Shown here piece after piece: positions 1 to 36,236 of a DNA stretch of 64,000 nucleotides. Within the stretch, counting starts at the first letter, position 1. Every line of letters begins with the position of its first letter. A program made the position numbers and the translations under genes. The stretch is from Mycolicibacterium alvei (lineage in GTDB: Bacteria; Actinomycetota; Actinomycetes; Mycobacteriales; Mycobacteriaceae). Location of the stretch: assembly GCF_010727325.1 (NCBI RefSeq), contig NZ_AP022565.1, positions 2,604,001 to 2,668,000 on the forward strand. The letters are read 5' to 3'. The notes beneath the pieces are model-generated. The model saw only the letters and a program-made list of their open reading frames with translations. It made no database searches and was not told the origin of the DNA.

Positions 1-3000
1 CCCAGGTCTTCCAACCGCTCGTCTCGGTCATCGACGGCGAGCACGGCCTGTGGCGGGTCGGACGTGGTGCGGACGCCGGCGGTGACGGTGACGCTTCCGT
101 CTACATATGCCCAGCACATGTCGGACCCGGCCGCTTCAAACGGCGTTGATCCGTCCAGCGTCGCCAACGCCGCCGCGGTGACCTCGTCAACATCAGACTT
201 CACCCTGTTGTCACTGCGGACGAACAAGTACGGCATCCACTTGCTGAAGTGTCGCCAGGCGTCGATGTCGGGAGTCACCATGAACTCGAGCAGTTGCGAT
301 ACCGGGTCTTTGGCTTGCAGCCGAACCAAACCCGGTTGAACATGGAACCGGCTGGTGACGAAGCTAGTGGCCTTTTGATCGAACCAAGCCGGCTCGATCG
401 ACTCCCCAGATTTGAACCGCTGCAGATCCTCATGTCCGAAGACCCACACCAGATAGCCCGCGGCCCGCAATGCGGCACGTTTGTCGGCGTCGTCGGCGAC
501 GCGGTTGCGGTCTCCGGTCCCCGCGTGAAATGCGCGACCGTCGGCGAAGATCGCGACGCGGGGGATGTCCGGGTCGGCGGTCTGCAACACAAAGTCGGGT
601 TTCACGAAGTCCAGCGAAACCTGCGGTCGCAGTGACCATTTCCGCGCCTTGCTGCCCTGCAGGGTGATGGTGGCCGACGGACCGTAGGTTCCCGGCTTCT
701 CCACGACGGCGGCACCCATCAACTTGAGCCGCTCGATGAACGAGCAGTAGTAGTCGCGTTCCAGGAACGACTCGTCGCTGAGCGGCGTGCTGGGCGGTGC
801 CTGCTCGGTCACGTCGGCGGTCCAGGCATCCAGCTCGGGCGTGCCGTGGGCGCCGACCTCGAGGATGCCGTCGAGCAGATTCAACGCGGTCAGCCGTGAC
901 ACCTTGTCCATCTCGTAAGGCGCAGCGAACGGCAGCAGGCAGCGGTGGCAGGCCAGCCGATCCTCGTCCCGGCACGGGCATTCCCGCAGAATCTGCCGGG
1001 CCGCCGCCAGCACCGCGAAAACCTTGGTGTGGTCAGCGAATTCGGCGAGGTATCCGGTCCCGCCGGGAACCGTGTCGTGGATCAGCAGCGCGCGTCGGTC
1101 GGGCGCCCAGAGCGCATCGCTGATGGTGGCGACGTCGAGATGCTCGGGTGATCCGCCGATCACCTCGCGCAGGCCGAGCAGGATCGCGGCGGCCAGGCTG
1201 GGGTGGGCGAAGTTGTCGTACTCCATCTGCGGAGGCAGGTGTAGCAGCACGCCCTGAGTGCGTAGTCGTCGCGCCAGCGCGATGTCACGGACGTCCTCGG
1301 CCGCCGAGCCCCGCAGGCGACACCAGGTGCGGTGCTCGTATCGACTGTTGCGCCCGGCCTCCCGGTCGAGTTGCCCACACGACGCGCAGACCCGGAACAG
1401 GCCGCTGGCCGATTCCTGCCCGGCAATCATCCGAGTCTTGCCCTTGGACGCCCGCCCGCCGAGATTGATCCAACGAATATCCAAGCGCCGCAGGTATTCC
1501 GCACCGAACGACGAGCTGGAGCGGAACCAGGTGCGCCCCACCTGGGTGGGGTCGACGTCGGCGGCGGTCACCACGGTGAACGGTTCCTGTGCGCGGTTGT
1601 CGCGCAGGTCGTTAATGGTGGCCTCATCCCGGCGCACTTCCGCCGAAACGCGGGTCATCTCGACGACCGACAGGTGCTGACTCACGTCGGCGATGCCTGA
1701 GCTGTGGCAGCGCGGGCAGCTCGACACGGGATCAGGTCCCGCAGCGGACGCGCTGCTGCGCACCCACCCGCACTGTGGGCAGACTTGCCAGTCGTGGATG
1801 TTGGATTCACCGGTGCCCAGGTCGACCGCGTCGATGGTGACCGCGAGGCCTTGGGCGTAGAAGGTGGCGCCCGGCGCGAGCTCGGTGAGCGCAACCCGGG
1901 AGCCGCGTTGATAGCTGAGTTGCTCGCCCATGTAGTCGTTGCTGTCCGGGTCGATCCAGGTCACGCCGACATCCAGGGTCACCGCGTCGTCGAGGAGCGT
2001 GTAGTTGGGCAGCACGCCGTAGCGTTCGAGCACCGAGATCCAGTAGTCGCGAGTCAGCGAGGTGATCTGGGCGCCAAGCAGTTTGCGTGAACCCTTGGCG
2101 ATCTTGAAGGCCCGACGGTCGTCGTCGGTGGCGGCCGGGGAGGTGGCCCGGCGTTCGAACTCGGGAAGATCCGCGTCGACGGTAGCCTGCCGTTCGGTGA
2201 GTTCTTTGAGGTCGAGTTGCCATTGGTAGGCCGCGGCCATCAGGCGCTGGGTGAGGCCACTGGGTCCGCCCTGCGGTGGCGCGCTCGCCCAGGATCGCAG
2301 GGCGTCGACGGCATCGGAGCTGAGATGTTCCCCGAACTGGGCCAGGAAGCGGTCCAGCAGCGCGTCGGCGTCGGTGGCGGCGGTCTCCATCAACCGAGCC
2401 AGCCAGCTGTCCGCCCCGTTGTCTCCGAGCACCGACCGTGCATCCTTGGGCGCCGCCAGCTGCGGGTCACGGGCGAACTGGTCGACGATGTGCGCAATGT
2501 ACTGGCGTTGCAGGATCTCCTCGGCGCTGAGGAACGTCGCCGGCGGGCGTACATCCCCCTGGATCACCGACAGCGGCTCGAACAGCTTGGGCAGATGTTC
2601 GCCACGGCCGCGAACGTAGGCCAGCACCAACGAGTTTCCGGTGAGCCGGCCGGCGCGCCCCACACGCTGCAGGTAGGACGACACCGATCGGGGCAGCGAC
2701 CCGAGCATGACGGTGGACAGGTCACCGATGTCGATGCCCATCTCCAGGGTCGGGGTCGCGACGAGCACGTTGGGTGCTTGCGGGTCGGTACCGCCGCGTT
2801 TGAAGGCAGTCTCATATTCGAGGCGGGTCTTGGTCGGCAGCAGGCCGGTGTGTTCCCGTGCGACGACACGTTTCATCTCCGTGGAGTCGTAGAGACGCCG
2901 GTAGAAGTTGTCGGTCTTCGCGCTACGACGCAGCCGCCCGGGGCAGCGGATCAACGTGCAGGGTGCCCCGTCCAGTTCGTCGACGGTGGTGGCACTGCCC

Positions 3001-5993: not shown

Positions 5994-6238
5994 CAGATTG
6001 CCTCCGTCTGCGCGCTCAAGCACTGGTGACCACGCCTATGTTTCCAAACGACGTTGTTCGTGTCATGGCAATGTGCAGGCGCGGCGCCCGATCTGATTCG
6101 CGCCAGGTCGTTCTCGGCGCGAGGTTCTCCAGACGTGTCACTTCGTGCACTGATATGCACTCTCTGGCCAGATTGTTGCTGCGCCCACGAGCCGAGTGCG
6201 TCGAGCGCTGGCACGAGCTTCGGATGCTTAATCGTCAT
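5993..6238 (-). CDS. Small 81-residue unknown protein coupled to gajB and the giant helicase
   Basis: The ATG at 6238 lies inside the last codons of gajB (11-base overlap), and the TGA shares a base with the ATG of the next gene (TGATG). Double coupling is the main evidence that this is a gene and not chance. The protein begins MTIKHPKLVPALDALG and is hydrophilic, with no membrane segment. It contains three histidines and two cysteines near the C-terminus but no motif I recognise. A TTG two codons upstream is an alternative start. It could be a regulator or bridging subunit; this is unproven. Confidence 0.5.
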   Translation of the reverse strand: MTIKHPKLVPALDALGSWAQQQSGQRVHISARSDTSGEPRAENDLARIRSGAAPAHCHDTNNVVWKHRRGHQCLSAQTEAI

Positions 6239-7889
6239 GAGCAAAATTCAGTAACTTGTCGTATGCCACTCGCTTCTCTGGCCATTGCCATGCCGGTATC
6301 TCAGCCGGTCGATCCCGATGAGCGGCGTAGGTCAGCACTAGGTGATGTTTCGCACGCGATATTGCGACGAAGAACTCGGACATGGCGACGGTGGGATCGC
6401 CCCGGAACAGTTGTCGGTCCACACCAAGGACGACGACCTTTTCAAACTCCAGGCCTTTGCATTTGTGGATGGTGAGGAATCGTATTGCCTCTTCATCCGA
6501 CAGACGCCGGAGGGCCTGGACTGGGTCACCGTCCAGCGTTAACTCGCGTCCGAATGCGTCGAGTGCTTGCTGGATCAGTTCGTCTAGATACGTGCCATGC
6601 TGGTACCCGGGAGACAATGCGGTGAGCACCGGTCGCGACACCATCTCCAGGAATTCGTTGACGAGCGTTCGCCAAGCTCCGATCTCGGCTAATTCGAAGT
6701 CGGGACTGCGCACTTCTGCTCGCGCTTTAAGGAGCATTCGCTTCATGCGGCTGTCGAAACGAGCGGCCTCTTCCTCGGAACTGCTGGCACGGTTAGCGAT
6801 TCGCATCACTTCGGTGTAGGCGTCGGGTTGCCTGTCGTCGGCGATGACGCGAATAAAATTGAGAACGAGCGCGGATGCTGGTTCGGCCACCAGGTCCTGA
6901 CTCTCTTGCTCATTACGGAACGGGATGCCGCACTCGGTCAGTTCGCGGCCGAGCACGGCTGCGACCAGGTGAGGTTGCTGGCGCACCAGGACAGCGATCT
7001 CTGTCGGCGCGACTCCAGCTTGGAGCCAGTCTTCGATGTAGCCCGACACCGACTCGGCTTCCTCAGCCTCATTGTCGAAGTTGCGCCTGTCGATGATGCC
7101 ATCACCACCGATAAGCTGCTCGGCGGGACTGACCGCTCCGGGGTCCATTTCTGCGATCATCCGATTCTGCATCCGCCTTAATCGCGGGGCGGAGCGGAAG
7201 TTCTGATACAGGGGGAGCGGAAGTGCCGAAAAGTCTTCCGCAAACGTCTGTAGCACTCCGTCCAGGGCGCCAGCCCACACCATAATCCGCTGTTTCGTAT
7301 CGCCGACGGCCGTCAAGACTTGCGACGCCTGACCGAACGCCAGTTTGATCATCTCGTACTGCGGTTTCGTACAGTCCTGAAACTCATCGAGAAACACATG
7401 GCTGAAGGTTTGGCGGGTTCCTCCAACGGCGTACGCGTTGGATTCGAGAATTTCCAATGCCAGAGGCACCAGGTCGTTGAAGGTTATTTGCTCACGCGCT
7501 ATACGAGTAGTGAAGTCGACGCGGTAGTCCGGATCGAGAGCGTTCTGCCCCGTCAAAGCTTGTCGGAAGTTGTCGATCAGTCGTTTGGCGAAAGCGTGGA
7601 AAGTGAAGCTGTCGAACCTCGCCGCCAGGTGAGCTCCAGAACGGCTGCGAACTCGGTCCCTCAGGTTTCGAGCCGCGTCGACTTTGACACTCAGGGCCAA
7701 GATTCGGCGCGGATAGTTACATTGACCCGTGCGGAGCAGAAAATCCGCCCGCTGAGCCAACAACTCGGTCTTTCCCGCACCCGGCCCCGCAGCGACCACC
7801 ACGTTCTGGTCCGCCATCGTCGCAGCCTTCAAGGCGTTTGGTTCGAGGATGAAACCGTCGATGGGTTGCCACTGGTCGGGGAGAATCAT
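6228..7889 (-). CDS. gajB: Gabija protein GajB, UvrD-like SF1A helicase
   Basis: 553 residues. Walker A AAGPGAGKTELL lies near residues 33-44, followed by SVKVDAARNLRDRV (motif Ia region). The Walker B box is FLDEFQDC, a GDTKQRI motif III follows, and FLTIHKCKGLEFEKVVVLG with a final VAISRAKHHLVLTYA gives motifs V and VI. It is a little longer than the roughly 490-residue Bacillus GajB. The start ATG overlaps the GajA stop by 4 bases (ATGA), the usual gajA-gajB arrangement. In Gabija, GajB is an ATPase/helicase-like partner that senses DNA ends and forms a complex with the GajA nuclease. The gene looks less G+C rich than the DISARM genes around it, consistent with separate acquisition. Confidence 0.88.
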   Translation of the reverse strand: MILPDQWQPIDGFILEPNALKAATMADQNVVVAAGPGAGKTELLAQRADFLLRTGQCNYPRRILALSVKVDAARNLRDRVRSRSGAHLAARFDSFTFHAFAKRLIDNFRQALTGQNALDPDYRVDFTTRIAREQITFNDLVPLALEILESNAYAVGGTRQTFSHVFLDEFQDCTKPQYEMIKLAFGQASQVLTAVGDTKQRIMVWAGALDGVLQTFAEDFSALPLPLYQNFRSAPRLRRMQNRMIAEMDPGAVSPAEQLIGGDGIIDRRNFDNEAEEAESVSGYIEDWLQAGVAPTEIAVLVRQQPHLVAAVLGRELTECGIPFRNEQESQDLVAEPASALVLNFIRVIADDRQPDAYTEVMRIANRASSSEEEAARFDSRMKRMLLKARAEVRSPDFELAEIGAWRTLVNEFLEMVSRPVLTALSPGYQHGTYLDELIQQALDAFGRELTLDGDPVQALRRLSDEEAIRFLTIHKCKGLEFEKVVVLGVDRQLFRGDPTVAMSEFFVAISRAKHHLVLTYAAHRDRPAEIPAWQWPEKRVAYDKLLNFAHDD

Positions 7890-9874
7890 TCTGGAAGCCC
7901 GGCAAGTTTCTTGCGCACATCTGCGACCAAGCGACTCAACGTGCTCGGCAGGCCGTCCAGAAGCTGCTTGTCGCTTAGCTCCGCCAATGCAGTCAAGTGT
8001 GCCGCGGGTTTGCTACCCAGATCAAATTTCTGATGGTAATCATCAAACAATCGGAGAAGATTATCGGGCAGGCGTCCTTCGTTCACATGGCTTTTTCCGA
8101 GCACAGCCACGATCGCATCATCATCGGCCTCAGACGGCACGACCCCGTAAGCATCGGGATAGGCGGCCATCATCATCAGATCGAGATCGACTGGGTCGGA
8201 GAAGTAGACGCCATGCTCCTCAAGCACCGCAACGGGCCCGCGGCCCTCGTCAAAGTTCCGGTCCGGGTCGATGAAAGCCGGAAAGTCTTGATCGTCGTTC
8301 CACTTAGGAAGCTCGTCAACCTTTGCCTTCGCGAACGTGTCTGAGCGAACGGCATTGATCTGCTTCAGAGCGTTGCGCACTCGACCCCAGCCACCGTGAT
8401 AGCGACCAGCATCGAGGTCAAGCAAAGTGACGTGAGGAATCTGCAATTCGTTGAGTAAACGCCAAAAGTGGTTGACGTGCCGCCCGCCGAGCGGCACCAC
8501 CAGCACGGAAGCATCTTCCTCAGCGATGCCGGCAGCAGCCAAAAAACGTGGCAACACGACCTGCTCACTGTCGCCCTCGCCGAGCACGACGAATCGAGAG
8601 AAGTACAACTCTGGATAGGCCTGGACGGCTTCCCGTACGTACTTGGCGGCCATCTCGCCGTCCTCCGGTAGGACGATGCGCTTGACGATGGTCTCCCTCA
8701 CATCGTTCAATCGCAAGAATCGGATCGCGTCTGGATCCACGCGACGCAGCAGCGTTGGTGCGTGTGTCGCGATGAGTGACTGAACATCGCCCAAATCACA
8801 TGCAGCTCGCAGCTGACGGATGATTCGGCCGAGATACTGTGGCGAGAGGCTGTTTTCTGGCTCTTCCAGTGCAATGACCGTATGTACGGGCGGGCGCAAC
8901 CGGTCAGCATCCAACGTCGACTCCTCGCCGCTGAGCACTCGTCTGGCGAGAGCCTGCCAGGCAAGGACGAGCGAGATGTAGAGCAAAGACTTCTGACCGT
9001 CACTTAACCTCTCGAATGGCAGTGGCACAGTGTCATGCGAGGGCGAGAACGTCACAGTAATCTGACGCAGCACGCCCTCAAAATCACCTCGCCCGAATGC
9101 AATTGACGGATCCTTGAAGTACATGCCTCCGTGAAGCCCTTGCCATTCGTCTGTCAAACGCAAACCTATGCTGCCCACCGCAGCATTTCCTACAAGCGAG
9201 GTCGTGATTTGTGCTGAAAGATCACCAATATCTACCCGCTCTTTCGTCCAATCTGCAGCTCGCAAACACCGGCCGATTAGCGAGGCCGTCGTGTATGAGA
9301 TGTGGTCAGCTGGGTCGCGGCGCGCAGGCAGGTAGTGCACTTCAATATGTCCGCGATCGTAACGAGACATGTCGGCACGACGAGTTGGATTGCCGAATTC
9401 GTCTGTCTCCAATACATACTCAATCTTCTCGTCGATGAAGCCGTCGAGGGCGAGCGTCGCGGTCAGGCGTACACGGATCCGCGGCACCCCCTCTGCGCTA
9501 TCGATCGCCATGTGCGCGAAGTTTGGTGGGACCGATCCATGTTGTGCGCCGTCGCGGGTTTCCGGGAACTCGACATCCACCTCAAGCCAAAGGGTCTGCC
9601 CGTCGGCTCTAATATCGGCCGGCGACTTGTCGATTGGCACATGGAAGTCTTCGACACGAATTCTCCGTTGAGTCTGCGACGGGCCGAACATTCGCGAAAG
9701 CGCTTCCAGCACAGCGGTCTTGCCAGTACCGTTCGGCCCAAGTATATAGGTCATACCAGCGAGACCAATATCCGTCGACTTGGGACCAAAACATTGAAAG
9801 TTGCTGACCCGGAGCGTCGTTATTTTCACAGAAGTATCGCCGTCTTTCTTGAGGTACTGATGCCTACACTGCAT
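7886..9874 (-). CDS. gajA: Gabija protein GajA, OLD-family ATPase with TOPRIM nuclease
   Basis: 662 residues. An N-terminal ABC-type ATPase shows Walker A GPNGTGKTAVLEAL, signature LSDGQKSLLYISL and Walker B VIALEEPENSLSP. The C-terminal half carries the TOPRIM glutamate in VVLGEGDSEQVVLPRF and the acidic pair in TLLDLDAGR, so the nuclease centre looks intact. In known Gabija systems GajA nicks DNA and is released from inhibition when phage replication depletes nucleotides. The upstream ATG 9874 is used here; GTG at 9829 gives VKITTLRVSNFQCFG, which matches the usual OLD N-terminus better and may be the true start. It lies 166 bases after drmMI on the same strand. The sequence is visibly more A+T rich than its flanks. 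Confidence 0.88.
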   Translation of the reverse strand: MQCRHQYLKKDGDTSVKITTLRVSNFQCFGPKSTDIGLAGMTYILGPNGTGKTAVLEALSRMFGPSQTQRRIRVEDFHVPIDKSPADIRADGQTLWLEVDVEFPETRDGAQHGSVPPNFAHMAIDSAEGVPRIRVRLTATLALDGFIDEKIEYVLETDEFGNPTRRADMSRYDRGHIEVHYLPARRDPADHISYTTASLIGRCLRAADWTKERVDIGDLSAQITTSLVGNAAVGSIGLRLTDEWQGLHGGMYFKDPSIAFGRGDFEGVLRQITVTFSPSHDTVPLPFERLSDGQKSLLYISLVLAWQALARRVLSGEESTLDADRLRPPVHTVIALEEPENSLSPQYLGRIIRQLRAACDLGDVQSLIATHAPTLLRRVDPDAIRFLRLNDVRETIVKRIVLPEDGEMAAKYVREAVQAYPELYFSRFVVLGEGDSEQVVLPRFLAAAGIAEEDASVLVVPLGGRHVNHFWRLLNELQIPHVTLLDLDAGRYHGGWGRVRNALKQINAVRSDTFAKAKVDELPKWNDDQDFPAFIDPDRNFDEGRGPVAVLEEHGVYFSDPVDLDLMMMAAYPDAYGVVPSEADDDAIVAVLGKSHVNEGRLPDNLLRLFDDYHQKFDLGSKPAAHLTALAELSDKQLLDGLPSTLSRLVADVRKKLAGLPE

Positions 9875-10040
9875 GAAAGTTTCAATCCAACAGAACCCCC
9901 AACTGACGCGTCGGCAGCACAGGCACGGCAGTTAAGCGCCGGAGTTGCATCAACATCAGGGACACTGATCCTGTAAGCCCATCTGTCACTCAGGCCGGCC
10001 GCCAGTCGCAACATCGCGCGCAGCCGCGCAACTCTTTGAT

Positions 10041-14636: not shown

Positions 14637-14639
14637 GGC

Positions 14640-17993: not shown

Positions 17994-18170
17994 TACACGG
18001 CCCTCGCTGGAATGCCGGTCCAGATCGGGTTGGCGTCAGGCGGGGCACCTGGACACTCCTTCCGTAGTCTCGGCCTTCTTCGAGACAGCCTTCCAGCCTC
18101 GCACGGGCCACCGACAAATATTCCGATACACATGGCTTCGCCATGAGAGTCGGCGCTGTCCCTTTGGGCT

Positions 18171-21947: not shown

Positions 21948-22092
21948 GGAAAGGTGCTGGATACCAATCACGCTACGGTCCAATCTGTCTGCGTCGGAAC
22001 TACCTTCTATTCAGCTCGCCGGGGTAGCGGCCGCGCGCGAACCACAGCGAGTTCACGATTCGACCGTGGTGAGCGCGGTGTACAGCGGTCGT

Positions 22093-22464
22093 TCATAGTT
22101 GCTCGGGCAGGACTGTGAAACCGTTCTCGGCGTAGTACTCCTGCAGCCGCTCGGCGACGATTCGCGGCAGATCGCGGTACTTCACCGGCCCCAAGTCGCG
22201 GGTATTGCGCCAACGGTAATCGAGGTCACGCTCACCTTCTGAGCCGTCGTCGAGCAGCTGGGGACCCCACACCCTCACCTGCACGAGCACACCGTCGGTC
22301 CAGTCAGCCGTGAAGTAAGTCGGACGGAAGTCCCTGACCCGACGAATGCCCTTCGCCTCGTCGGTGACCGCGCCGCATCTCATGTCGCGCAGCTCCCCGT
22401 ACTTGAGCGGGAACCGTTGATGATGTTTGCCTTTCACTACGTGCCACAACCTTTCCTGACTCAC
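22093..22464 (-). CDS. Unknown 123-residue protein of the DISARM operon
   Basis: GTG at 22464 is preceded by a GAGG ribosome site about 8 bases upstream and lies 23 bases after the drmB stop; a TTG at 22482 is an alternative. The protein begins VSQERLWHVVKGKHH and ends ENGFTVLPEQL. It is hydrophilic and mixed in charge, with repeated tryptophan/tyrosine-containing segments (TADWTDGVLVQVRVWG, LDYRWRNTRDLG) that suggest a small beta-rich fold. There is no cysteine pair or membrane segment. No HxKxxxxD phospholipase motif is present, so it is not DrmC. It is in the position where DrmC would be expected in many DISARM loci. Confidence 0.65.
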   Translation of the reverse strand: MSQERLWHVVKGKHHQRFPLKYGELRDMRCGAVTDEAKGIRRVRDFRPTYFTADWTDGVLVQVRVWGPQLLDDGSEGERDLDYRWRNTRDLGPVKYRDLPRIVAERLQEYYAENGFTVLPEQL

Positions 22465-22487
22465 TTGCCGGCCTCGCCCCAAACTGA

Positions 22488-24221
22488 TCAGAGCGCCTTC
22501 TCGACCAGCTCACAGAACAACCCCGCATCCTCACAGCCCTCGTCATGGGTGCCGAACAGCAGGGCTCGGTCCAGATATGAGTTGTTCATCTCACATGACG
22601 TCTCCGGTGCGAGGACGCATGCATGACAGGCTGCGAGATTCAGTCCATCGGCGCCCGAGCCCGCCGACTCGATGCACACCGGGTCGGACGAACACCAGGA
22701 CAGGCGTTGCAGACCTTCCCTGAGTGCCGCCCCAAGGTGCTCTGTCTCTGCCATCGAGGCGACTCCGCCCAGGCTTCCGGCCGAGTCTGAGCTTGCCGTG
22801 TAGATCAATAGCCCTGCCACCTTGTCGTTCACGAAGAGCCGTTCTCGAAGCGCTGATGCCGGATACCCGGCGTCGAGGGACAACTGATCAATGATGATGT
22901 GCGACAACGTGTGTATCGCAACCTTGATAATGTCGACAGGCGCTGGCGGGCGTCCGTAATCTGCGGCCGCTCGGTCGGCTGCCTTCTGCAATATCCGCCG
23001 TCGCCTTTGTGCGAACTCACCGCCGGCCCACTCCTCGAGCGCGTCGCGCCGAAACGCGAGGAAGACACCCTCGCCGATCACTTCGATCGCCGGCAACCAG
23101 TGCTCATGTTTGGGCGAGAGAGCACACAGTTTCTGCGCGGGACCGGATGGATCGGGCGCACCATCCAGACGGGTAAACCCTTGCAGTGCACGCACTTCCC
23201 GGAGTCTGGTCACCTTCCGAACGTCAGAGATCAGGGATTCGAACCCGTCCGGGACATCGCGGCGCAGGCAGACGAAGTCCGAGTCGAGGCTTTCCTCCTC
23301 ACGTCCCTCGACCAGCGCCTTGTATTCATCGGCGCGGAGCTTGGCCTCCGAGATCTCTTCGTCGCCTTCCGCCTCACCGCGACGGCGTTCGATCTCACGG
23401 GTGATCTGGTCGACGCTGAACCGGCCCTTGGACATGGCAGCCAGGCCGGCGAGCACGGGCGGGATCACGGCGGCAGGATCTTTGACCATTTCCCAGTGCT
23501 TGTCCACGAACTTCGCGATGGCTATCGAATAGGGCGGTATCGAGATCGAGGACCGCACGGCCGGGAACCAGACGTTCGAGGCACCGCGTTGCACCGCGCG
23601 CGGATATTCGTCGCATTCCTCATTCGTGTCAGGTCCCAACCATGGCCGCAGACCCTTGCACTTACCAAAGTCAATGAGTGAACCCGCACCGATGGCACCG
23701 TCAAGGCTCCGACTCTGGACGCCGCAGCTGCACTCCAGGACAAGGTCAGCCAGAGATGACGTCCGTCCGAGCACGTTGAGTTCCATTCTGTGCTCATCGC
23801 CGCTGCTCTTGTCATATTGGCCCTTGTGTAACCACGAGAAGACGGGGAATTCGCTCACATGACCGTTTCGACATGCGCTCATCAGACGAAACGGGGTCAG
23901 GTCGATGTTGTCTTCCTTGCACCTCGCCTCGTTCGGATCCTTGGACAGATCCCTCAGCGAACCGATACGTCGACACTTCGGACACACCTGCGTGTAGGGG
24001 TAGCGGATGACCGGCACATCCCGCTTGCCGCCTGCCGGCGGGGCCTTGAGCTCCGCGACCCCAAGCGCCCGGGCCAACCGCGGCTCCGCGATGTGCTCGG
24101 CTCTCTTCGGATCCCATTCATGAAGACCAGCAATCATGAAGCTCGTTGACTCAGACGGGAACAGACCGCCCACCCCGTATGTGCTCAATAACTGGCTGCG
24201 CCGAGCCTTCGCACCGTTCAT
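22488..24221 (-). CDS. drmB: DISARM protein DrmB (DUF1998)
   Basis: 577 residues. The N-terminus LLSTYGVGGLFP is typical of DrmB. Two cysteine clusters follow: CPKCRR...CKED near residues 80-110 and LECSCG...GKCKG near 165-190. The C-terminal DUF1998/MZB-type cluster reads C...ACHACVLAPETSCEMNN and is followed by LDRALLFG. ATG 24221 overlaps the drmA stop by 4 bases (ATGA), the usual drmA-drmB coupling. In the described system DrmA and DrmB form a DNA-binding complex that recognises unmodified incoming phage DNA with a 5' overhang. All expected cysteines are present. Confidence 0.92.
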   Translation of the reverse strand: MNGAKARRSQLLSTYGVGGLFPSESTSFMIAGLHEWDPKRAEHIAEPRLARALGVAELKAPPAGGKRDVPVIRYPYTQVCPKCRRIGSLRDLSKDPNEARCKEDNIDLTPFRLMSACRNGHVSEFPVFSWLHKGQYDKSSGDEHRMELNVLGRTSSLADLVLECSCGVQSRSLDGAIGAGSLIDFGKCKGLRPWLGPDTNEECDEYPRAVQRGASNVWFPAVRSSISIPPYSIAIAKFVDKHWEMVKDPAAVIPPVLAGLAAMSKGRFSVDQITREIERRRGEAEGDEEISEAKLRADEYKALVEGREEESLDSDFVCLRRDVPDGFESLISDVRKVTRLREVRALQGFTRLDGAPDPSGPAQKLCALSPKHEHWLPAIEVIGEGVFLAFRRDALEEWAGGEFAQRRRRILQKAADRAAADYGRPPAPVDIIKVAIHTLSHIIIDQLSLDAGYPASALRERLFVNDKVAGLLIYTASSDSAGSLGGVASMAETEHLGAALREGLQRLSWCSSDPVCIESAGSGADGLNLAACHACVLAPETSCEMNNSYLDRALLFGTHDEGCEDAGLFCELVEKAL

Positions 24222-27424: not shown

Positions 27425-27439
27425 CGCGAACTGCAACTC

Positions 27440-29254
27440 CTATGTTGTGGTCAAGTCCGGGCGGGCCAGACCCGTTATGCGCGGCACCAACCAGAATCCT
27501 GAGCTTCCGAGACCGGCCTTCTCCGACTCGCGATAGTCACCCGCGACCGTCTCGATCGACACCAGAGACAGACCGTCGATGACCGTCGGACGATTCTTCA
27601 ACCAACCGAACGCCTTCTGGAACGCGTGGTTGAACGCAGGGCTTGTGCGTCCCAACGGCTGCAGGTCTTGTGTCACCAACAGGTAGGACGGCGATTCGGC
27701 GGTGGACTCGGCCTCGTCGAGTTCTGCGTAAATCCTCACGCCGACCTGACCGATTGATTGCAGCGTCTGCTGTAGGCGCTGGGCATCGACGGTGTGTGAC
27801 GCGACGGGGTACGCGGTCTCCACGTCGCTGTAGAGGAATTCGAATGCCCTCGTCCACGTCGCACCGCGCTTCTTCTTACTCCAAACCTCCTCCTTGAACC
27901 GTCCCAGCCGGTCGTCGGCTTTGATCACGGATTTCGATTGCGGCAACCTGCACGTGAAGATTTCATCGCGCGCTCGACTCAACGCCACGTACTCACGACG
28001 CATCCTCGTCCAAATGTCCTCGTCTTCCGGCAACCATCCAGGTTCGACGATGAAGACGGAGTCGAACTCCAAGCCTTTCGCCCGATGGACCGTCGACACG
28101 ATCACCGAACTGAGGTCGGGCTCGGTGAGCGGAAGCGGCAACGCCCGCGCCTTGACCAGACGGCTCATCCGATGAAGGTCCAGCGAGTCGTATTCACTGC
28201 TGCGCCCTTCGGCAGACTTGAGTTCGTTCCACTTCTCTTCCACGTCGCGCTCGGCGAGCAGCCGCTCGAGCGCGGCTTCGACCTCGGATCGCCGTTCCTT
28301 CGGGCCCGGCAACGGGCCGAGCGCACCCGCGATCCACCGTGCGGCACCGAAATCCTGTGCCTGCCTGCGGACAGCGTGCGCGACGGATTTTTCGTTGAGA
28401 TACCGCGACACCCGGAGCACGTCCGCGTTGGTCGTGCAGAGTATCGCCGTCTTCTTGCCCGCGGACGGCGTGACAAGGTCGTACCAATCCTCGATCTCGC
28501 CGCGATAAGGCAGCTCGTAAGCCAGATCTACCAGTAGGTCCTCCGCCTCGTCGCTGTCGGCGGTGGCACGGAGCTTCTCACCCAAGGCGACAACCGCTTT
28601 CGGGTACTTACCCCTGGCGCGGTAATTCCTGCCCAGACCGACGGTTTCACAACCGAACGATCCCTTGAGTGAGTCGAAGAAATCCTCAGCCGTCGTCTTG
28701 CTGAGCGAATCCTCAAGCTGAAAGTCGTACACACCCTGCAACGGGTCACCGAGGGCGGTGATACCGGCGTCGTCATCGAGCCAATTCAGGATGGCCAGCA
28801 CGAAATCGGATCGGTCACCGACGAGGTCCTGCACCTCGTCGAGGACAACATGACGCAGGGGCTCGATCTCGTCGGGCGCTTTGTCCGCCTCCTTCAGCAG
28901 CTGCGTCGCACGCCGAATACGGGCGTCGAAGCTGCCCTCGGGTTGAATATCGGCTCCGAGCAGCAAGATGCTCGCAAATGAGTCGAATGTCCGAACGTTT
29001 GGCGCGGCAGCGTCCCTCATCTCCAGCCGGGTCCGGACAGCCGATACCGCGGCTCGAGAGAAGCTCAGAACGAGAATTTCGTCGGAGGCCGTCAGACCCT
29101 CGTCGCGCACCAGGCTGTTGATCCGACTGACGACGACTTCGGTCTTGCCTTGCCCAGCCCCCGCGATCACCAGCAATCGCGCATCCGCGGACGCGTCGAC
29201 CACGTCGAGTTGTTGCTCGTTGAGCTCTATTTCATGCCGACCTTCATCCGACAT
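27440..29254 (-). CDS. UvrD/Rep-like SF1A helicase upstream of drmA
   Basis: 604 residues from ATG 29254, which overlaps the end of the GHKL-helicase gene by 11 bases (GTG 29272 is an alternative). Motifs: LVIAGAGQGKTEVVVSR near 30-45, VLSFSRAAVSAVRTRL, VLDEVQDLVGDR, ALGDPLQGVYDF, STVHRAKGLEFDSVFI and VALSRARDEIF. It lacks nuclease motifs and is about the size of GajB, to which its core is distantly alike. Its coupling to the GHKL-helicase gene on one side and drmA on the other suggests a pair-wise role with the GHKL protein, analogous to a GajA/GajB-type ATPase plus helicase unit (inference). A stand-alone repair helicase is less likely given the context. Confidence 0.85.
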   Translation of the reverse strand: MSDEGRHEIELNEQQLDVVDASADARLLVIAGAGQGKTEVVVSRINSLVRDEGLTASDEILVLSFSRAAVSAVRTRLEMRDAAAPNVRTFDSFASILLLGADIQPEGSFDARIRRATQLLKEADKAPDEIEPLRHVVLDEVQDLVGDRSDFVLAILNWLDDDAGITALGDPLQGVYDFQLEDSLSKTTAEDFFDSLKGSFGCETVGLGRNYRARGKYPKAVVALGEKLRATADSDEAEDLLVDLAYELPYRGEIEDWYDLVTPSAGKKTAILCTTNADVLRVSRYLNEKSVAHAVRRQAQDFGAARWIAGALGPLPGPKERRSEVEAALERLLAERDVEEKWNELKSAEGRSSEYDSLDLHRMSRLVKARALPLPLTEPDLSSVIVSTVHRAKGLEFDSVFIVEPGWLPEDEDIWTRMRREYVALSRARDEIFTCRLPQSKSVIKADDRLGRFKEEVWSKKKRGATWTRAFEFLYSDVETAYPVASHTVDAQRLQQTLQSIGQVGVRIYAELDEAESTAESPSYLLVTQDLQPLGRTSPAFNHAFQKAFGWLKNRPTVIDGLSLVSIETVAGDYRESEKAGLGSSGFWLVPRITGLARPDLTTT

Positions 29255-32200
29255 CGGCAGGCTCCTCTTCACGTTCTGATTCGAAGATGTCTTTCACCTT
29301 GTGGTACTCGATGCTGTCACCGAACTCAACGATGTTGTCGAGCATGTTGACAATCAAGACCTCTTCGGTACCACCATTTTTCGGTCCACGAAGACCGCGG
29401 CCTACCATCTGCAGGTAACGGACCTCGCTACTGGTCGGACGGGTGATGTATACGGCGTCGGTCTTCGGCGCATCGAAGCCCTGGGACAACACCGCGTAAT
29501 TTGTCAGTACCTTCAAATCGCCTGACTTGAACCGTTCGATCGCCACGCGCCGGTCTTCGGGGCTGGTGTCCTGGTCTATGGAAGCAGCCGGGCGTCCGTG
29601 GAGCGTCAACAAGGTGGCCAAGGTCTGGGCATTCTCGACCGAAGCGGCGAAGACCACGATCTGCCAGCTCTCGGGCTTGCTCAGGATCGAATCCACGATC
29701 GTGCGGGTACGGTCTTCATCCCGACCGATCCGGATCTCGGCACTCTTGGACAGCCAGCCCTTTGACTTGAAATCTTGGAGTTCGTAGTCCGACAGATCGA
29801 TGGACACACCACCGATAATTTCCAGGCTGGCGCGGGCGAGAACTCGGTCTCGCTGCAACCTGACCTGTGGGAGTTCGTCGCCGAATACCCCCTCGTCCAA
29901 GCGGTTATCGTCGAATCGAGCCAACAGGCGTTCCGTTTCCGCACTGTCGCGGCGACCCCGAAACGGTGTTGCCGTCAGCCCGATCAGGGGTTTGTCCCGC
30001 TGGCGCGTGCCGCGGCCCAGCCACTCCAAGATCGTGGTGTAGGACGGGGTGTAGGCGCCGTGCGCCTCGTCGATAATGACGATCGGCGCCTCGGCCAACC
30101 AGGCGTAATCCGCGTTGTCGACGGCAGCGGCCTTGATCTTCTGCCATGTCGCCACCACGACCTGCACGCCCGCCAATTCCTCTTCCATGTCGTAGTTCGA
30201 CCAGAATCGGCTGAGGATCAGCTGGGTGTCCTGCCGGCCGAGGGCCCGCCACAAATATGACCACGCGTCGATCGCCTGCTCACAGAGTTCTTCTCCGTCG
30301 GCCAACCACAGGATGGGTCCAGAGAAGGAAGTGCCATAGGCCAATCCGTCGAGACTGCCGTCGCGGATCGACTGGATGACAGTCTGTACGGCAACGCGGG
30401 TCTTTCCGGCACCTGTGGGCAACGAAACGATTCCTCGCCGGGGCCCAACTCCGCGCAGCAGGTCGGCGAGGCGCTGGGAAACCACCTGCTGGTAGTCGTG
30501 GAGCTCGTCGAGTTGGGTTGGGCCGTCGATGTATTCCGTCGGCTTGTTACGCTGCCTTGCCTTCTGGCCCGCCCATTCCTCGCCGAACCCCAGTCGTTTC
30601 ACCCAGGCCCGAGTATTGAACGATCCCGCCCAAGTCGACGGAGCGGGAACCGGCAGCCCACTGGCACCCACTCTGCACGCGCGTTCCAATGCACGGACAC
30701 CGAGCATCGTCACGCAGAGTTTGGCGAGGTCGAGACCATGCGGTTCCAGCAAGCCGTCGTTGACGAGGTAGGTGAGCGCATCCTTCGGGACCAGCGTCCT
30801 CAGACGCTCCTCTCCCGCGAACATGAGGAGGCGTTCGGCATCGGTGGACGCATTCCTGATCGCCCGAACAAGTTCCGAATTACGGCGCTGCTCCATGTCC
30901 TGGAGCAAAAGGTCGACGCGTCTGTCGGAATTGTCGTGAAGCAGGCATTCGAGCGCTTGCTTCAGAATCTCTCGGTCGGTGGTGCCGGTCACGAGGATTC
31001 TGTTCGCTTCTCGGCCCGACGTGCAAGCCACCTGTACGGCGGGCTGGCCGGGGACAGCCGCCACCTTGCTGATGGACAGGCACTTCTGCAGGACCAGACC
31101 TTCGAGCTCATCAGCGCCGGGGAGCGTGTCGAGCACCGGGAACACCTCAGTGAGCCGTTCCGGCTCCGCACTCGTCTCGTAGGAATAGGTGACGGGGAGG
31201 GCGCGACCCTCTAGACAGCCCCACCACTCACTCAGCGTGTGGACGTCATCGATACTGTCGACGAGGATGCAAGGGATGCCGAACTCGTCGAGTTCGTCGT
31301 ATGACTTCTTGCCGTGGACAACCGCGACGGACTTCCGGTCCTCCTCCGCCCACTGACCATCACGGCGCACCCACACTCGATCGGGCGGCTCGACCTCTTT
31401 GTGCGTCCAACACCACCAGGCGTAAGTCTGACCTACCCGCAGAGTGTCATCGCGCTTGACGTGAACCTGCACAAGCGAATTGAATCCTGACGGGTCGAGG
31501 TCTCCCATCTCGCGCTTGAGCCCCAAGACCCGTTCGGCATCGGAGCTGATCACGATCTGGCTCACACACGGGATGAGACCCTCAGCAACACCCTGCACCT
31601 CTGCGACGAATGCATCGGCCACCGGCACGGCTCCCAACGTGGTTTGCAACAGCCCATGTTGGCGAACCCACCAGAGTTCCGGCGCAACGTAGCGGGCCGT
31701 CTTGGGGACGTTGGGATGGGTCACCCGCACCCGCGGAACGTCGACGTCGTTGATGACCGCGGCACTCAGTGCCACCTTGTTCGTGACACTGAGGTCCGGC
31801 AAGCATTCCAAAGGCCCGAGGACCGCATTGATGCCGTCGATCTCGATACCCTGTCGCGCCTGGAGTCCCAGTCCCAATTCATCTCCGAGCCGTTCGCGAA
31901 CGGTGCTTTGGTACCGCGCCACCCATTTCTCATTCGAGGCAGCTGCCGATCGCGTTGGCCTCGATCTCACACCCAGCAAGAACAGGATTTCGTGGTCGGC
32001 GGCGTGATAATCGCCGTCAACGAGGTATGCACCGTCCTCCTTCAAAGGCTTGAGACACTCCCCTGCGAAATACAAACCTTCGGCAAGCACCCAGCGGCCG
32101 TGACCATTTCGCACCTGGATCACCTTGGTGGCTTTGCCGTCCAACACTCCGTCGAAAGCCTCGTGCACCTGCTGAACGCCTGAGCCGCGCATCGCGATCC

Positions 32201-33956
32201 ACAGCTCGTCCCAGTCGACCTTCCCGGTGTGTCTGAGCTCGGTGAGTAGCTGCAGCATCTCACCACCGTCTTCGTACGCGGTGATGCCCAGGTATTTCAG
32301 TGCATCGGCGATGGCCGGACGCCCGGCCACAGTCTCGTTGACAAAGGAGGTTCCATTCTGCCCCGGATTGGTACGCAGGAAGCACCGACCACGTACTGGT
32401 TGCGCAAGAGACCCGTTCTCCAACAACACGATCCGCGCATCGCGCACGTCCTTCTCGGTGTTGCCGCCTGTGCGTACCAGCTCCGCGGCCAGCTCGATTG
32501 CCGCGGCGGATTGTTCAGGTTTCGGGTCGGCCACCACCGACTGCAGCCAGTGCAGAACCCGACCCGGGGATTTCTCCCTGTCATCCTCTTGCAGGAGACG
32601 ATCGACTTTGGAGCGTCGATCGGTTCTGCTGGTGCAGTCGGGGTGCACCCATGCCCCACGGTTGCCGGTGACGGTCAACCATCGACCCGCTAGTTCAACG
32701 ACGTCGTTGGGAATACGTTGTAGCGCACTAGGTGCCCGCAGCTGTCCATCAAGATCCGGCAGGCAGCGAGATTCCCGGAGAGCTCGAAAAACGGGCTCAT
32801 TCAAGACCGTGTCGGCCCAACTACGGGACTCCTTCCCACGCGCGGGCAAGACGTCGATGTAACGACCGAATGCGCGGTCAGCGATCAGATCCTTGCGCGC
32901 GGCGACCACCAGCTTCGGCACCACCTGGGTCAGAATCTCGTAGTTGAACTCACACTCGATCACGTTGATGCGATCGTCGGACAGCTTCCACGGGGCATTC
33001 ACCCGGCCGCTCAGGGTCAAATCAGATTTGACCGGGAAGAAGGCGGACAGCTGACCCACACCGACTGCCCCCGTCAACGGCAGTGCCCAACTCACCGTCA
33101 CAGAGTCGCGCCGGGCTGCGTGACCAGCCGATTCCAACGCTTTGGCGGACGGCTTGTGCTCAGTAGATACGACCAACCAATCTCGATCGCCGTCCTCGGT
33201 CGTGAGGATGACCCGGTTTCCACTTTTTGCCGCCTTGAAATGGCGCTCACGGCCCCCGACCCGGTCGACGAGGTCGAGGATCCGCACATGGGGGGCAAAG
33301 AGATTGAACGACTCGTCGAACTCGTTGATCTCGGCGGACAGCTGAGCTGCCGCCCCGTTCTTCAACGGCACCTTGACGACGGTCGTAGCCCACTCGGCGA
33401 GGTCGGCAAGGACAGCATCCGCGCGAAACTCGGACATTGGGTTGAGCGACCAGGCCAGCCGCAACGCCGGGACGTCGGCAGGTTCATGATGGCGTCCCAG
33501 TTCGTCGGACAGCTTTTCGGCTGCCTGGTGTCGGCTGAACTCGAACGAAACCGAGCGGCTGAAGATCTGCGGGCTGTCGGAGATGCCGCTGATCGACTTG
33601 AATCCCAACCCGAAGCGGCCGATCTCGGTACCGGTCTTGTTCGACAGGTGCGTGTACAGCAGTGCACGGACGCCTGAGTCCTCGAACGGATGGCCCTCGT
33701 TCGCCACGTAGAGCGCATCACTCGTCAGGGTGACCTGGATACGCCCGGGCGCCCCTTTGAGCGCGTCCGCAGAGTTCTGGACGAGTTCCTGGATCTGTTT
33801 CCGCCCGTACCCGCCTTCGGCGATGCCACGCTCTTTGCCGGCGTCTTCCTCGACCCGGTTCGGATCCTCTTTGTAGACCCGAATACACCTCTCGCGGAAC
33901 TCGTTGACCAGCCGTTCCAGCCCACGATCCGGGTCAGACCACCCCATGGCCACCAT
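29244..33956 (-). CDS. GHKL (Hsp90/MutL-type) ATPase fused to SF2 helicase
   Basis: About 1570 residues. Near the N-terminus a Bergerat-fold ATPase shows the N box ELVQNSADAL, the G1-like NEGHPF and the G2-like GRFGLGFKS, all within residues 55-125. The next 1000 residues are unassigned. An SF2 helicase closes the protein: SLPTGAGKTRVAVQ near 1180, VIIDEAHGAY near 1293, GLTATPFRGR and QMVGRGLRGPK near 1515. ATG 33956 is used; a GGGGAGG just upstream is spaced better for GTG 33953, and ATG 33947 or GTG 33968 are also possible. This is the first gene of the minus-strand operon. GHKL ATPases are known in restriction-type systems (prokaryotic MORC relatives), but this fusion heading a DISARM operon is not part of the described core. 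Confidence 0.85.
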   Translation of the reverse strand: MVAMGWSDPDRGLERLVNEFRERCIRVYKEDPNRVEEDAGKERGIAEGGYGRKQIQELVQNSADALKGAPGRIQVTLTSDALYVANEGHPFEDSGVRALLYTHLSNKTGTEIGRFGLGFKSISGISDSPQIFSRSVSFEFSRHQAAEKLSDELGRHHEPADVPALRLAWSLNPMSEFRADAVLADLAEWATTVVKVPLKNGAAAQLSAEINEFDESFNLFAPHVRILDLVDRVGGRERHFKAAKSGNRVILTTEDGDRDWLVVSTEHKPSAKALESAGHAARRDSVTVSWALPLTGAVGVGQLSAFFPVKSDLTLSGRVNAPWKLSDDRINVIECEFNYEILTQVVPKLVVAARKDLIADRAFGRYIDVLPARGKESRSWADTVLNEPVFRALRESRCLPDLDGQLRAPSALQRIPNDVVELAGRWLTVTGNRGAWVHPDCTSRTDRRSKVDRLLQEDDREKSPGRVLHWLQSVVADPKPEQSAAAIELAAELVRTGGNTEKDVRDARIVLLENGSLAQPVRGRCFLRTNPGQNGTSFVNETVAGRPAIADALKYLGITAYEDGGEMLQLLTELRHTGKVDWDELWIAMRGSGVQQVHEAFDGVLDGKATKVIQVRNGHGRWVLAEGLYFAGECLKPLKEDGAYLVDGDYHAADHEILFLLGVRSRPTRSAAASNEKWVARYQSTVRERLGDELGLGLQARQGIEIDGINAVLGPLECLPDLSVTNKVALSAAVINDVDVPRVRVTHPNVPKTARYVAPELWWVRQHGLLQTTLGAVPVADAFVAEVQGVAEGLIPCVSQIVISSDAERVLGLKREMGDLDPSGFNSLVQVHVKRDDTLRVGQTYAWWCWTHKEVEPPDRVWVRRDGQWAEEDRKSVAVVHGKKSYDELDEFGIPCILVDSIDDVHTLSEWWGCLEGRALPVTYSYETSAEPERLTEVFPVLDTLPGADELEGLVLQKCLSISKVAAVPGQPAVQVACTSGREANRILVTGTTDREILKQALECLLHDNSDRRVDLLLQDMEQRRNSELVRAIRNASTDAERLLMFAGEERLRTLVPKDALTYLVNDGLLEPHGLDLAKLCVTMLGVRALERACRVGASGLPVPAPSTWAGSFNTRAWVKRLGFGEEWAGQKARQRNKPTEYIDGPTQLDELHDYQQVVSQRLADLLRGVGPRRGIVSLPTGAGKTRVAVQTVIQSIRDGSLDGLAYGTSFSGPILWLADGEELCEQAIDAWSYLWRALGRQDTQLILSRFWSNYDMEEELAGVQVVVATWQKIKAAAVDNADYAWLAEAPIVIIDEAHGAYTPSYTTILEWLGRGTRQRDKPLIGLTATPFRGRRDSAETERLLARFDDNRLDEGVFGDELPQVRLQRDRVLARASLEIIGGVSIDLSDYELQDFKSKGWLSKSAEIRIGRDEDRTRTIVDSILSKPESWQIVVFAASVENAQTLATLLTLHGRPAASIDQDTSPEDRRVAIERFKSGDLKVLTNYAVLSQGFDAPKTDAVYITRPTSSEVRYLQMVGRGLRGPKNGGTEEVLIVNMLDNIVEFGDSIEYHKVKDIFESEREEEPADVG

Positions 33957-34171
33957 CAGCCTCCCCACACGTCAACGGCAGCAACTCCGCTTGTTTGCGG
34001 AACCATCGTCCGCGTTCCCCGAGTTTGTATCATTCGCCACCGTCAAATATTGGCTAGTCCTGCGAAGTGGTTGTTGCGTCGCGCAAGCGGAACCGGGCCG
34101 GGCAGCAGTCGACTGAGCGGGTTCGGCCGCGCTGCACCGGCAGATCACGAGCGGCCGGCTAGCATCAACCC
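33957..34171. promoter_or_regulatory. Divergent intergenic region, likely promoters of both operons
   Basis: This is the only divergent gap between the minus-strand defence operon and the C5 methyltransferase. It contains a distinctly A+T-rich stretch at about 34018-34062 (with TTTGTATCATT and TCAAATATTGG), which contrasts with the surrounding G+C-rich coding DNA. No clean -35/-10 pair at 16-18 spacing is visible, so only the position is proposed. The methyltransferase lacks a good ribosome site and might be leaderless. Confidence 0.4.
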
Positions 34172-35752: not shown

Positions 35753-36236
35753 GTCGAATCCACCCGCCACGAGCTTAGATGGAACGCGAATCCCGAGTAT
35801 TGGGTGATCGAATCTCGGCCAAGCGATCACTGCGCTTTCTCAAGAAGACCAAACGTCTGATCACACGGCGCAACTCACCGGAAACCCGGACGTCGAAGTT
35901 CACCACGGGCAAGATCTCCGGCCCGACCCACACGCTTGCGCTAGGCAAGTCCGAACCTTCTTCGTTCCACGTACCAGCGACCCTCGACAGGCCTATCCTG
36001 CTGCTTGTTCGATGTCGAGCAGTTCGGCGCCCTCCGGCCCCAACGACCGGAGCCAACGCGTTGACCACCCCACCGGTCGCCATGTCGGTCCTCGTGAGTA
36101 TGGTTCGCGCAACCGCTCGATATTGACGCGGCCGCATAGGGCGATTCGAGGTTAGGCCGGGGGTGGTCAGGGTGCACGCAGTTCGTTGCCTCGTGGCGCA
36201 GCCGCCGTTGCGGGCGCGCATTACTTCAGCCTGCCC
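35753..36236. other. Intergenic region with weak minus-strand coding signal
   Basis: 484 bases between vsr and the DinG-RecQ gene. Two minus-strand stretches look coding-like. One (about 36146-35994, 50 codons, no ATG) includes PTWRPVGWSTRWLRSLG and ends ELLDIEQAAG. The other (36083-35775, 102 codons from ATG) ends with VNFDVRVSGELRRVIRR followed by a basic tail, and stops 22 bases before the vsr GTG. They overlap in different frames, so at most one is a gene, or they are remains of a decayed one. It should also hold the promoters for vsr and the plus-strand operon, but no clear boxes are seen. Confidence 0.3.

What the first reader, a model, noticed from the sequence alone, without database searches (positions are those of the whole stretch)
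1..33956. Eleven-gene, 34-kb minus-strand operon joining class 1 DISARM, Gabija and extra helicases
All genes are co-directional and most are overlapping or within 25 bases: GHKL-helicase/UvrD (11-base overlap), UvrD/drmA 15, drmA/drmB ATGA, drmB/123-aa 23, drmD/drmMI 3, gajA/gajB ATGA, gajB/81-aa 11-base overlap, 81-aa/DUF1998 helicase TGATG. DISARM and Gabija are established separate systems. Their arrangement in one transcript with four further large enzymes suggests a super-locus that may act as one layered defence. That they cooperate is inference.
Basis: partly seen in the sequence, partly recalled or inferred. Interest (0 to 1): 0.85.

Follow-up and report, generated by a model that had tools for sequence, protein, structure and literature searches.

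The report
Gabija nested inside an ARMADA operon
A long run of bacterial anti-virus genes turns out to be a known kind of defence operon (ARMADA rather than DISARM) with another complete defence system, Gabija, slotted between two of its genes, at a junction where many related bacteria carry other, often defence-like, genes.

Summary
The gene run is real: 12 co-directional minus-strand ORFs, continuing past the window edge into one more gene (armD). The naming needs correcting. The SNF2 helicase and methylase called drmD/drmMI group with ARMADA type II ArmA/ArmB, apart from class 1 DISARM; the DUF1998 helicase is ArmC; no DrmC was found. DrmA and DrmB, with a GHKL-helicase and a UvrD, form a module upstream of ARMADA, and this eight-gene order occurs uninterrupted in a same-genus genome (G224). 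Two cassettes are nested in it: a RecD-like helicase (PADLOC PDC-S68) before armA, and Gabija exactly between the armB stop and the armC start. In 111 other ARMADA loci the armB-armC junction holds 250 bp or more in 44 of 104 assessable (34 of 94 if only loci where armC was found are counted), against 1 of 99 at armA-armB and 4 of 79 at armC-armD. Cargo elsewhere includes GmrSD, a DRT reverse transcriptase, AbiU, AbiE and OLD/Septu-like genes; Gabija itself was in none. Embedding of defence systems is published; this ARMADA slot was not mentioned in what I read. One transcript and cooperation remain untested.

The parts
29244..33968 (-). ghkl: GHKL/sacsin-type N-terminus with a RadD-like SF2 helicase C-terminus, 1574 aa; first gene of the run
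   Evidence: 76% identical gene heads the same run in G224
27440..29272 (-). uvrD: UvrD/Rep-type helicase, 610 aa
24218..27436 (-). drmA: DrmA helicase, 1072 aa
   Evidence: solved DrmA 7s9v, E 7e-169
22488..24221 (-). drmB: DrmB, MZB/DUF1998 protein, 577 aa
22093..22482 (-). orf129: small protein of unknown function; also in L018 and L020
18171..21983 (-). Nested cassette 1: RecD-like helicase, PADLOC candidate PDC-S68, 1270 aa
   Evidence: absent from G224 and L020; 99.8% identical in L018
5994..10040 (-). Nested cassette 2: the armB-armC slot, from the armB stop to the armC ATG, holding Gabija here
7886..9874 (-). gajA: OLD-type ATPase with TOPRIM domain, 662 aa
6228..7889 (-). gajB: UvrD-like helicase, 553 aa
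5993..6244 (-). Small ORF between gajB and armC; coding status uncertain (weak codon-position signal, no Pfam or PADLOC hit, no tblastn hit at E<=1e-10 in the other loci)
1..5993 (-). armC: YprA-like DEAD helicase with MZB domain; ATG at 5993; gene continues left to L007:19610, followed by armD at L007:17387-19609
34172..35281 (+). Divergent C5-cytosine methyltransferase, a recurrent neighbour of the DrmAB module (possible partner, not part of the minus-strand run)

Best explanation
This is an ARMADA type II operon (armA-armB-armC-armD) preceded by a DrmAB module (GHKL-helicase, UvrD, DrmA, DrmB), with two further defence cassettes nested at gene junctions: a PDC-S68 RecD-like helicase ahead of armA, and an intact-looking Gabija pair between armB and armC. 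Shown here: the anatomy, the ARMADA affiliation, the conserved core order, the gene-exact limits of the Gabija insert, and the repeated filling of the armB-armC junction with different genes in relatives. Most likely mechanism (inferred from homologues): ArmB methylates self DNA at a target set by its variable 3' third; ArmA, ArmC and ArmD and the DrmAB helicase process unmodified incoming DNA, with a probable Vsr-like nuclease at the ArmC C-terminus; Gabija acts as an independent backup when phages disable host DNA-end processing or deplete nucleotides. Sitting in the slot would give cargo the operon's expression, in some relatives with its last gene abutting or overlapping armC. Cargo is probably swapped by homologous recombination through the shared armB and armC flanks. 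One transcript and functional cooperation are inference.
For: ArmA and ArmB group with ARMADA (100/100) away from three class 1 DISARM sets (33-45% against 28-36% identity over shorter stretches). ArmC and ArmD match ARMADA counterparts over most of their length. G224 has the eight-gene order with both junctions empty. Against L018, L020, L021, L027 and L031 homology stops within 17 nt of the armB stop and resumes within 5 nt of the armC ATG (ATG). Junction counts over 111 loci: armB-armC 44 of 104, armA-armB 1 of 99, armC-armD 4 of 79. 11 of 20 cargo proteins scanned reach 60 bits or more in PADLOC; none of 9 scanned right-flank proteins of the window other than the SNF2 protein had a hit. 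An ORF of 200 aa or more ends within -11 to +3 nt of the armC start in 8 of the 34 occupied loci where armC was seen. Insert GC 0.578 against 0.621 (armB) and 0.669 (armC part). Patchwork identity to L018.
Against: No expression data; the 166-nt gap before gajA could hold its own promoter (the simple scan showed no excess, but covers only sigma-70-like sites). Outside the close ArmB group only 17 of 73 assessable loci are occupied, and the five ARMADA plasmids from E. coli (2), Martelella, Aulosira and Microvirga that I looked at have no cargo there. In 10 of the 44 occupied loci armC was not reached in the stretch scored and might be lost. Nine of 20 scanned cargo proteins have weak or no PADLOC hit. 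Two ARMADA features, the ArmC Vsr-type nuclease and the ArmD RelE-like part, were not settled. Gabija in this slot was seen once.
Confidence: 0.75

Rival explanations
1. One reading: class 1 DISARM, Gabija and extra helicases form one super-locus selected to act as a single layered defence.
For: Co-directional genes with short spacings; the DrmAB-ARMADA part is conserved; ARMADA II and Druantia III are reported to be synergistic in E. coli (PMC12458937, part 4 read).
Against: DrmD/DrmMI are ArmA/ArmB and there is no DrmC; Gabija is in 0 of 111 other ARMADA loci; the three largest gaps flank the cassettes.
Confidence: 0.2
2. Recombination-hotspot reading: the slot exists because the armB 3' end (target-recognition part) is exchanged or inverted often, and cargo merely hitchhikes.
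For: Identity to L018 falls to 56-64% at 11743-10544, next to the slot. In G270, G026 and G018 the slot holds an inverted armB 3' copy and a tyrosine recombinase gene.
Against: The Gabija insert carries no recombinase ORF that Pfam recognises, and the last cargo gene abuts armC in 8 of 34 loci, more orderly than bare hitchhiking predicts. The two readings can both hold.
Confidence: 0.4
3. Mobile-element reading: integrating elements use the armB-armC junction as a target, and the defence genes are their cargo.
For: Several Nocardia inserts are 7.5 to over 18 kb and share genes with each other; tyrosine recombinases occur in three slots.
Against: Short inserts in the close mycobacterial relatives are one or a few co-directional genes; no flanking repeat or tRNA target was found, though repeats at the slot limits of the window were not searched for specifically.
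Confidence: 0.2
4. Ordinary defence-island accumulation: genes pile up by chance in a permissive region and the arrangement has no functional meaning.
For: Divergent defence-like genes lie next door; defence islands are common (established knowledge).
Against: Inserts concentrate at one of the three ARMADA junctions and respect gene ends in the close relatives.
Confidence: 0.12

Closest known systems
ARMADA type II (Bell et al. 2025, PMC12458937; parts 1-4 of 8 and passages read)
   Same: Four genes in the order SNF2 helicase, PglX-like methylase, YprA-like helicase, UvrD helicase, homologous to the E. coli system on plasmids
   Different: The order is interrupted by Gabija between armB and armC, and a GHKL-helicase/UvrD/DrmA/DrmB module and a RecD-like helicase precede armA
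DISARM class 1
   Same: DrmA and DrmB adjacent, with an SNF2 helicase and a methylase in the same run
   Different: The SNF2 helicase and methylase are of the ARMADA type, there is no DrmC, and the gene order differs from drmD-drmMI-drmA-drmB-drmC
Gabija
   Same: gajA (OLD ATPase with TOPRIM) and gajB (UvrD-like helicase) as an overlapping pair
   Different: Lies inside another system's operon; the relatives seen with sequence on both sides (G100, G272, G297) have no window-operon gene other than gaj within the 20 kb fetched
Embedded defence genes ('guilt by embedding'; Payne et al. 2024 preprint, not held, seen only through citing passages in PMC12255303 and PMC12988326) and auxiliary modules in BREX loci (PMC12839542, section 35 first part read)
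   Same: Complete defence genes between core genes of another system; GmrSD- and OLD-type modules recur in both
   Different: The host system here is ARMADA II with one preferred junction, which in three genomes holds an inverted methylase 3' copy with a recombinase

Membership tests
ARMADA type II | ArmA: BrxHII/RapA-like SNF2 helicase of the ARMADA clade | tested here: met
ARMADA type II | ArmB: PglX-like methylase with SAM and NPPW motifs, ARMADA clade | tested here: met
ARMADA type II | ArmC: YprA-like helicase with MZB/DUF1998 domain | tested here: met
ARMADA type II | ArmC C-terminal Vsr-type nuclease | tested here: inconclusive
   Conserved PD...DG...H motif in 26 relatives, 5 of 26 match PF18741 and 1 of 26 Vsr weakly, HHalign to three Vsr proteins E 0.001 but probability 21%, no PDB hit
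ARMADA type II | ArmD: GajB-like UvrD helicase | tested here: met
   L018 ArmD 33% to E. coli ArmD over nearly full length
ARMADA type II | ArmD N-terminal RelE-like domain | tested here: inconclusive
   No RelE hit in Pfam or PDB; the N-terminus does align with that of E. coli ArmD
ARMADA type II | Order armA-armB-armC-armD | tested here: met
   Order kept, but not contiguous: Gabija lies between armB and armC
ARMADA type II | Anti-phage activity | not testable with these tools
   none
DISARM class 1 | DrmA and DrmB | tested here: met
   DrmA lies outside the clade of the three class 1 DISARM references (long branches noted there)
DISARM class 1 | DrmD and DrmMI | tested here: not met
DISARM class 1 | DrmC (PLD-family protein) | tested here: not met
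   No PLD domain in the Pfam scans of the operon's proteins
Gabija | gajA with OLD ATPase and TOPRIM, overlapping gajB of UvrD type | tested here: met
Gabija | Anti-phage activity | not testable with these tools
   none
Embedded defence cassette | Lies between core genes of another system and is absent from relatives with the uninterrupted core | tested here: met

The most novel reading that the evidence does not exclude
In actinobacterial ARMADA II the armB-armC junction is a standing dock: the operon takes up exchangeable effectors (Gabija, GmrSD, a DRT reverse transcriptase, AbiE, OLD types) between its recognition half (armA-armB) and its helicase-nuclease half (armC-armD), places them so that they are expressed with armC and act as backups when phages block the core, and in some lineages uses the same dock for a recombinase-driven switch of the methylase's target specificity.
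Probability: 0.3. Interest if true: 0.8.

Novelty: new variant of a known kind. Interest (0 to 1): 0.6.

Why it matters
It gives a defined place to look for new defence genes: unknown cargo in the armB-armC slot (for example the 249-aa family in four loci, or the 568-aa and 917-aa proteins without a PADLOC hit) is a ready list of candidates. It warns that DISARM calls in mycobacteria may really be ARMADA with a DrmAB module. It also offers close natural pairs (same core, different cargo) in which the claim that nested systems cooperate can be tested by simple gene removal.

Tried and rejected
Considered and rejected. (a) The small ORF before armC as a displaced armB end: ArmB is complete to its C-terminus. 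(b) The same ORF as a remnant of the L018 cargo: no resemblance, compared by eye between printed sequences. (c) Druantia type III for the DUF1998 helicase: PADLOC's best is DruE3 at 286 bits, but the matches to ARMADA ArmC are longer and stronger than to E. coli DruE, and ArmD follows directly. (d) Promoter/terminator scan of 5500-25000: no excess over shuffles. Led nowhere: tRNA scans of the window and of the left 40 kb found none.

Limits. Of the family genomes with a large ArmB match 46 were fetched; G284 and G049, on contig ends, were not. Seven of 111 loci were unassessable at armB-armC. Ten of the 44 'occupied' loci were scored so because 3 kb or more followed armB without armC; without them the count is 34 of 94. 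Junction ends are extrapolated from alignments. Cargo proteins for PADLOC were chosen by size and position, not at random; hits to broad ATPase families (OLD, PtuA, AriA) name a type, not a proven system. A first gene caller missed cargo genes and was replaced. For the Nostoc DISARM methylase, split by an IS element, only the longer part was used in the tree. An earlier count said 9 of 36 coupled loci; recounted it is 8 of 34 with an ORF of 200 aa or more.

Full report
What is there. The window is G000:C1:2604001-2668000 of a 6.0-Mb genome. Genome G273 is labelled 'same genus' and its contig length, 707575, equals that of Mycolicibacterium iranicum L054, so the host is probably a Mycobacterium in the broad sense (inferred). 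From 33968 down to the left edge, 12 minus-strand ORFs run head to tail. Fetching the 20 kb to the left (L007) shows that the last one ends at L007:19610 and abuts a 740-aa UvrD helicase at L007:17387-19609.

Which system. PADLOC gives DrmA, DrmB, GajA and GajB strong matches. The SNF2 helicase scores 304 bits as DrmD, but the methylase scores 1353 as a type IIG-like enzyme and only 168 as DrmMI. On plasmids of E. coli (2), Martelella, Microvirga and Streptomyces (2) the same two proteins are followed directly by a large DEAD/DEAH helicase and a UvrD-type helicase; in Aulosira by hypothetical proteins of like size; in Cylindrospermopsis the order is different. Bell et al. 2025 (PMC12458937; parts 1-4 of 8 and passages read) name this four-gene system ARMADA type II and report that it restricts phages and needs all four genes. 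I compared the window with three class 1 DISARM sets (Sphingomonas, Deinococcus, Nostoc; drmC is annotated in the last two). The window's SNF2 and methylase join ARMADA with 100/100 support. No PLD-type DrmC was found in the Pfam scans of the operon's proteins. So 'class 1 DISARM' fails two of its defining features; DrmA and DrmB are present as part of another module. Against this filing stand two unsettled ARMADA features, the ArmC Vsr-type nuclease (suggestive only) and the ArmD RelE-like part.

The DrmAB module. G224, of the same genus, has ghkl-uvrD-drmA-drmB-armA-armB-armC-armD in one run, 76-86% identical to the window, with about 180 bp between drmB and armA and nothing between armB and armC. 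DrmA at 55% identity or more lies upstream of armA in 13 loci: L018, L020, L038, L062, L068, L091 and L094 of the 80 named loci (at most 10 kb upstream held), and G075, G143, G168, G211, G224 and G276 of the 20 non-duplicate family genomes whose upstream DNA I fetched. In nine of the 13 drmB ends within about 550 bp of armA; in L018 the RecD-like gene lies between them; in L038, L062 and L068 drmB is 3-4 kb away. In G001/L223 ghkl-uvrD-drmA-drmB is a separate operon some distance from ARMADA. It is a module that keeps company with ARMADA.

Two nested cassettes. Compared with G224 the window has gained (i) orf129 and a 1270-aa RecD-like helicase, PADLOC's PDC-S68, and (ii) Gabija. Blastn against L018, L020, L021, L027 and L031 ends within 17 nt of the armB stop and resumes within 5 nt of the armC ATG (the ATG is at 5993, read). 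The insert has GC 0.578 against 0.621 for armB and 0.669 for the armC part. In L018 the same place holds an unrelated 249-aa gene, also ending in a TGATG overlap with armC. The only gaps over 100 nt in the run (109, 177, 166) flank these cassettes. The RecD-like gene was found in 1 of the 111 other loci (L018, 99.8% identical).

Is the position special? I measured the three ARMADA junctions in 80 named loci and 46 family-genome loci, 111 after dropping 15 duplicates. Junctions of 250 bp or more: armB-armC 44 of 104 assessable (7 unassessable), armA-armB 1 of 99, armC-armD 4 of 79. In 10 of the 44, armC was not reached in the stretch scored; without them it is 34 of 94. In the 70 loci with all three junctions scored the counts are 19, 1 and 4. 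Occupancy is 27 of 31 assessable loci where ArmB is at least 60% identical to the window's, and 17 of 73 in the rest. Of the 60 empty junctions 46 have a computed gap of 0 or less.

What sits there. PADLOC scans of 20 cargo proteins, 11 of them at 60 bits or more: GmrSD/HEC-06 (L027, 140; six relatives by clustering), HEC-05 (L057, 666), DRT UG17 reverse transcriptase (L022, 485), AbiEii (L026, 358), AbiU (L066, 347), PDC-S37 (L067, 189), AriA-like (G146, 121; L069, 119), OLD-like (G098, 107), RmrA (L060, 77), PtuA-like (L071, 75). The other nine are weak or without a hit: L018, L045, L063, L081, L085, L086, L090, G060, G210. Pfam adds a 5'-nucleotidase in L053, related to an ORF in G283. HEC-06 is said to have antiviral activity in assays (passage in PMC12988326). 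Gabija itself was in none of the 111 loci as far as fetched, and only 6 of 301 family genomes, own included, have a GajA at E<=1e-60. So the Gabija link looks recent and particular; the slot is general in this group. In 8 of 34 occupied loci with armC seen, an ORF of 200 aa or more ends within -11 to +3 nt of the armC start.

How it may change hands. Along the operon, 300-nt identity to L018 is 78-86% over the covered end of drmA and most of drmB, 87-91% to the end of orf129, 98-100% from 22243 to 17444 (recD and the armA start), 88-97% to 12644, falling through 77-83% to 56-64% at 11743-10544 (the likely target-recognition part), 77% at 10543-10244; then comes the cargo change, then 83-97% through armC and armD. 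This patchwork fits recombination in blocks, though fast divergence of the armB 3' part would look similar. In G270, G026 and G018 the slot holds an inverted second copy of the armB 3' part (inverted repeats 336 nt at 96%; 840 nt at 86% and 298 nt at 93%; 650 nt at 76%) and a tyrosine-recombinase gene: an invertible specificity switch is likely, but inversion was not seen.

Function. Shown by sequence: NPPW and SAM motifs in ArmB, Walker A motifs in GajA, GajB, ArmD and RecD, a DEFH box in ArmC. Inferred: ArmB marks self; ArmA, ArmC, ArmD and DrmAB act on unmarked DNA; Gabija is a separate layer. A 2026 review says that Gabija acts where RecBCD is inhibited and prevents genome circularization (PMC12904381, passages); nucleotide depletion as a trigger I know from a reference title seen. 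This fits a backup against phages that disarm end-processing. Whether one layer depends on the other is untested.

What is known. Embedding one defence system in another is in print: DarTG2 in a type I restriction locus, with the remark that Septu sits in Hma systems (PMC12255303, passages); OLD, GmrSD and Schlafen modules within BREX loci (PMC12839542, section 35 first part); a second system in type I restriction loci of Pseudomonas islands (PMC12629846, passages). The Payne et al. 2024 preprint is not held. Bell et al. call the ARMADA II order strict and do not name Gabija in the main text. My searches on ARMADA with DISARM, with Druantia and with Gabija and on guilt-by-embedding showed no report of an armB-armC slot in the listings and passages I saw; supplementary files were not open to me. 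Verdict: a new variant of a known kind, with a cleanly defined slot that makes cooperation testable.

Noticed in passing
L150 (G270) 1-3420; L152 (G026) 2-4414; L213 (G018) 4115-11047: The armB-armC slot of three family genomes holds an inverted second copy of the armB 3' part and a tyrosine-recombinase gene: a likely invertible switch of methylase specificity.
   Followed up: partly
18171-21983 against L018:2654-6463: The RecD-like gene and its borders (22243-17444) are 98-100% identical in DNA to M. peregrinum L018 while neighbouring drmA/drmB are 78-86%: a recent block exchange.
   Followed up: partly
36186-47904 (+): Divergent pair: a 1754-aa fusion of RNase T, DinG-like and DpdF/RecQ-like helicase parts, and a 2153-aa SNF2 protein. 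A similar pair (dinG 74%, snf2b 61-78%) lies divergent from armA in Mycolicibacterium iranicum (L054/G273).
   Followed up: partly
L018:14603-15352, L019:6209-6892, L021:8097-8804, L031:14523-15227: A family of 227-249 aa in the slot of four mycobacterial loci; the L018 member has no Pfam or PADLOC hit.
   Followed up: partly
L214, L219: UvrD-DrmA-DrmB followed by a NERD-domain protein in Azospirillum and Rhizobium plasmids, without DrmC, DrmD or DrmMI next to it: another DrmAB module; its DrmA is 40-42% identical to the window's, against 37-38% for DISARM.
   Followed up: partly
G098, G210, G270: A 2.4-2.8 kb gap between armC and armD in three family genomes: possibly a second, rarer slot.
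   Followed up: no
L016:2701-19374: Cylindrospermopsis plasmid with the large helicase and UvrD before the SNF2-methylase pair, a reversed ARMADA-like order.
   Followed up: no
L012, L017: E. coli plasmids (IncFIB, IncY) with zorA2, a two-gene Druantia III-like pair and ARMADA II side by side, as Bell et al. describe for chromosomal islands.
   Followed up: no
49800-58859 (-): Two WXG100-type genes (PF06013, PF25547) lie to the right of the defence genes.
   Followed up: no
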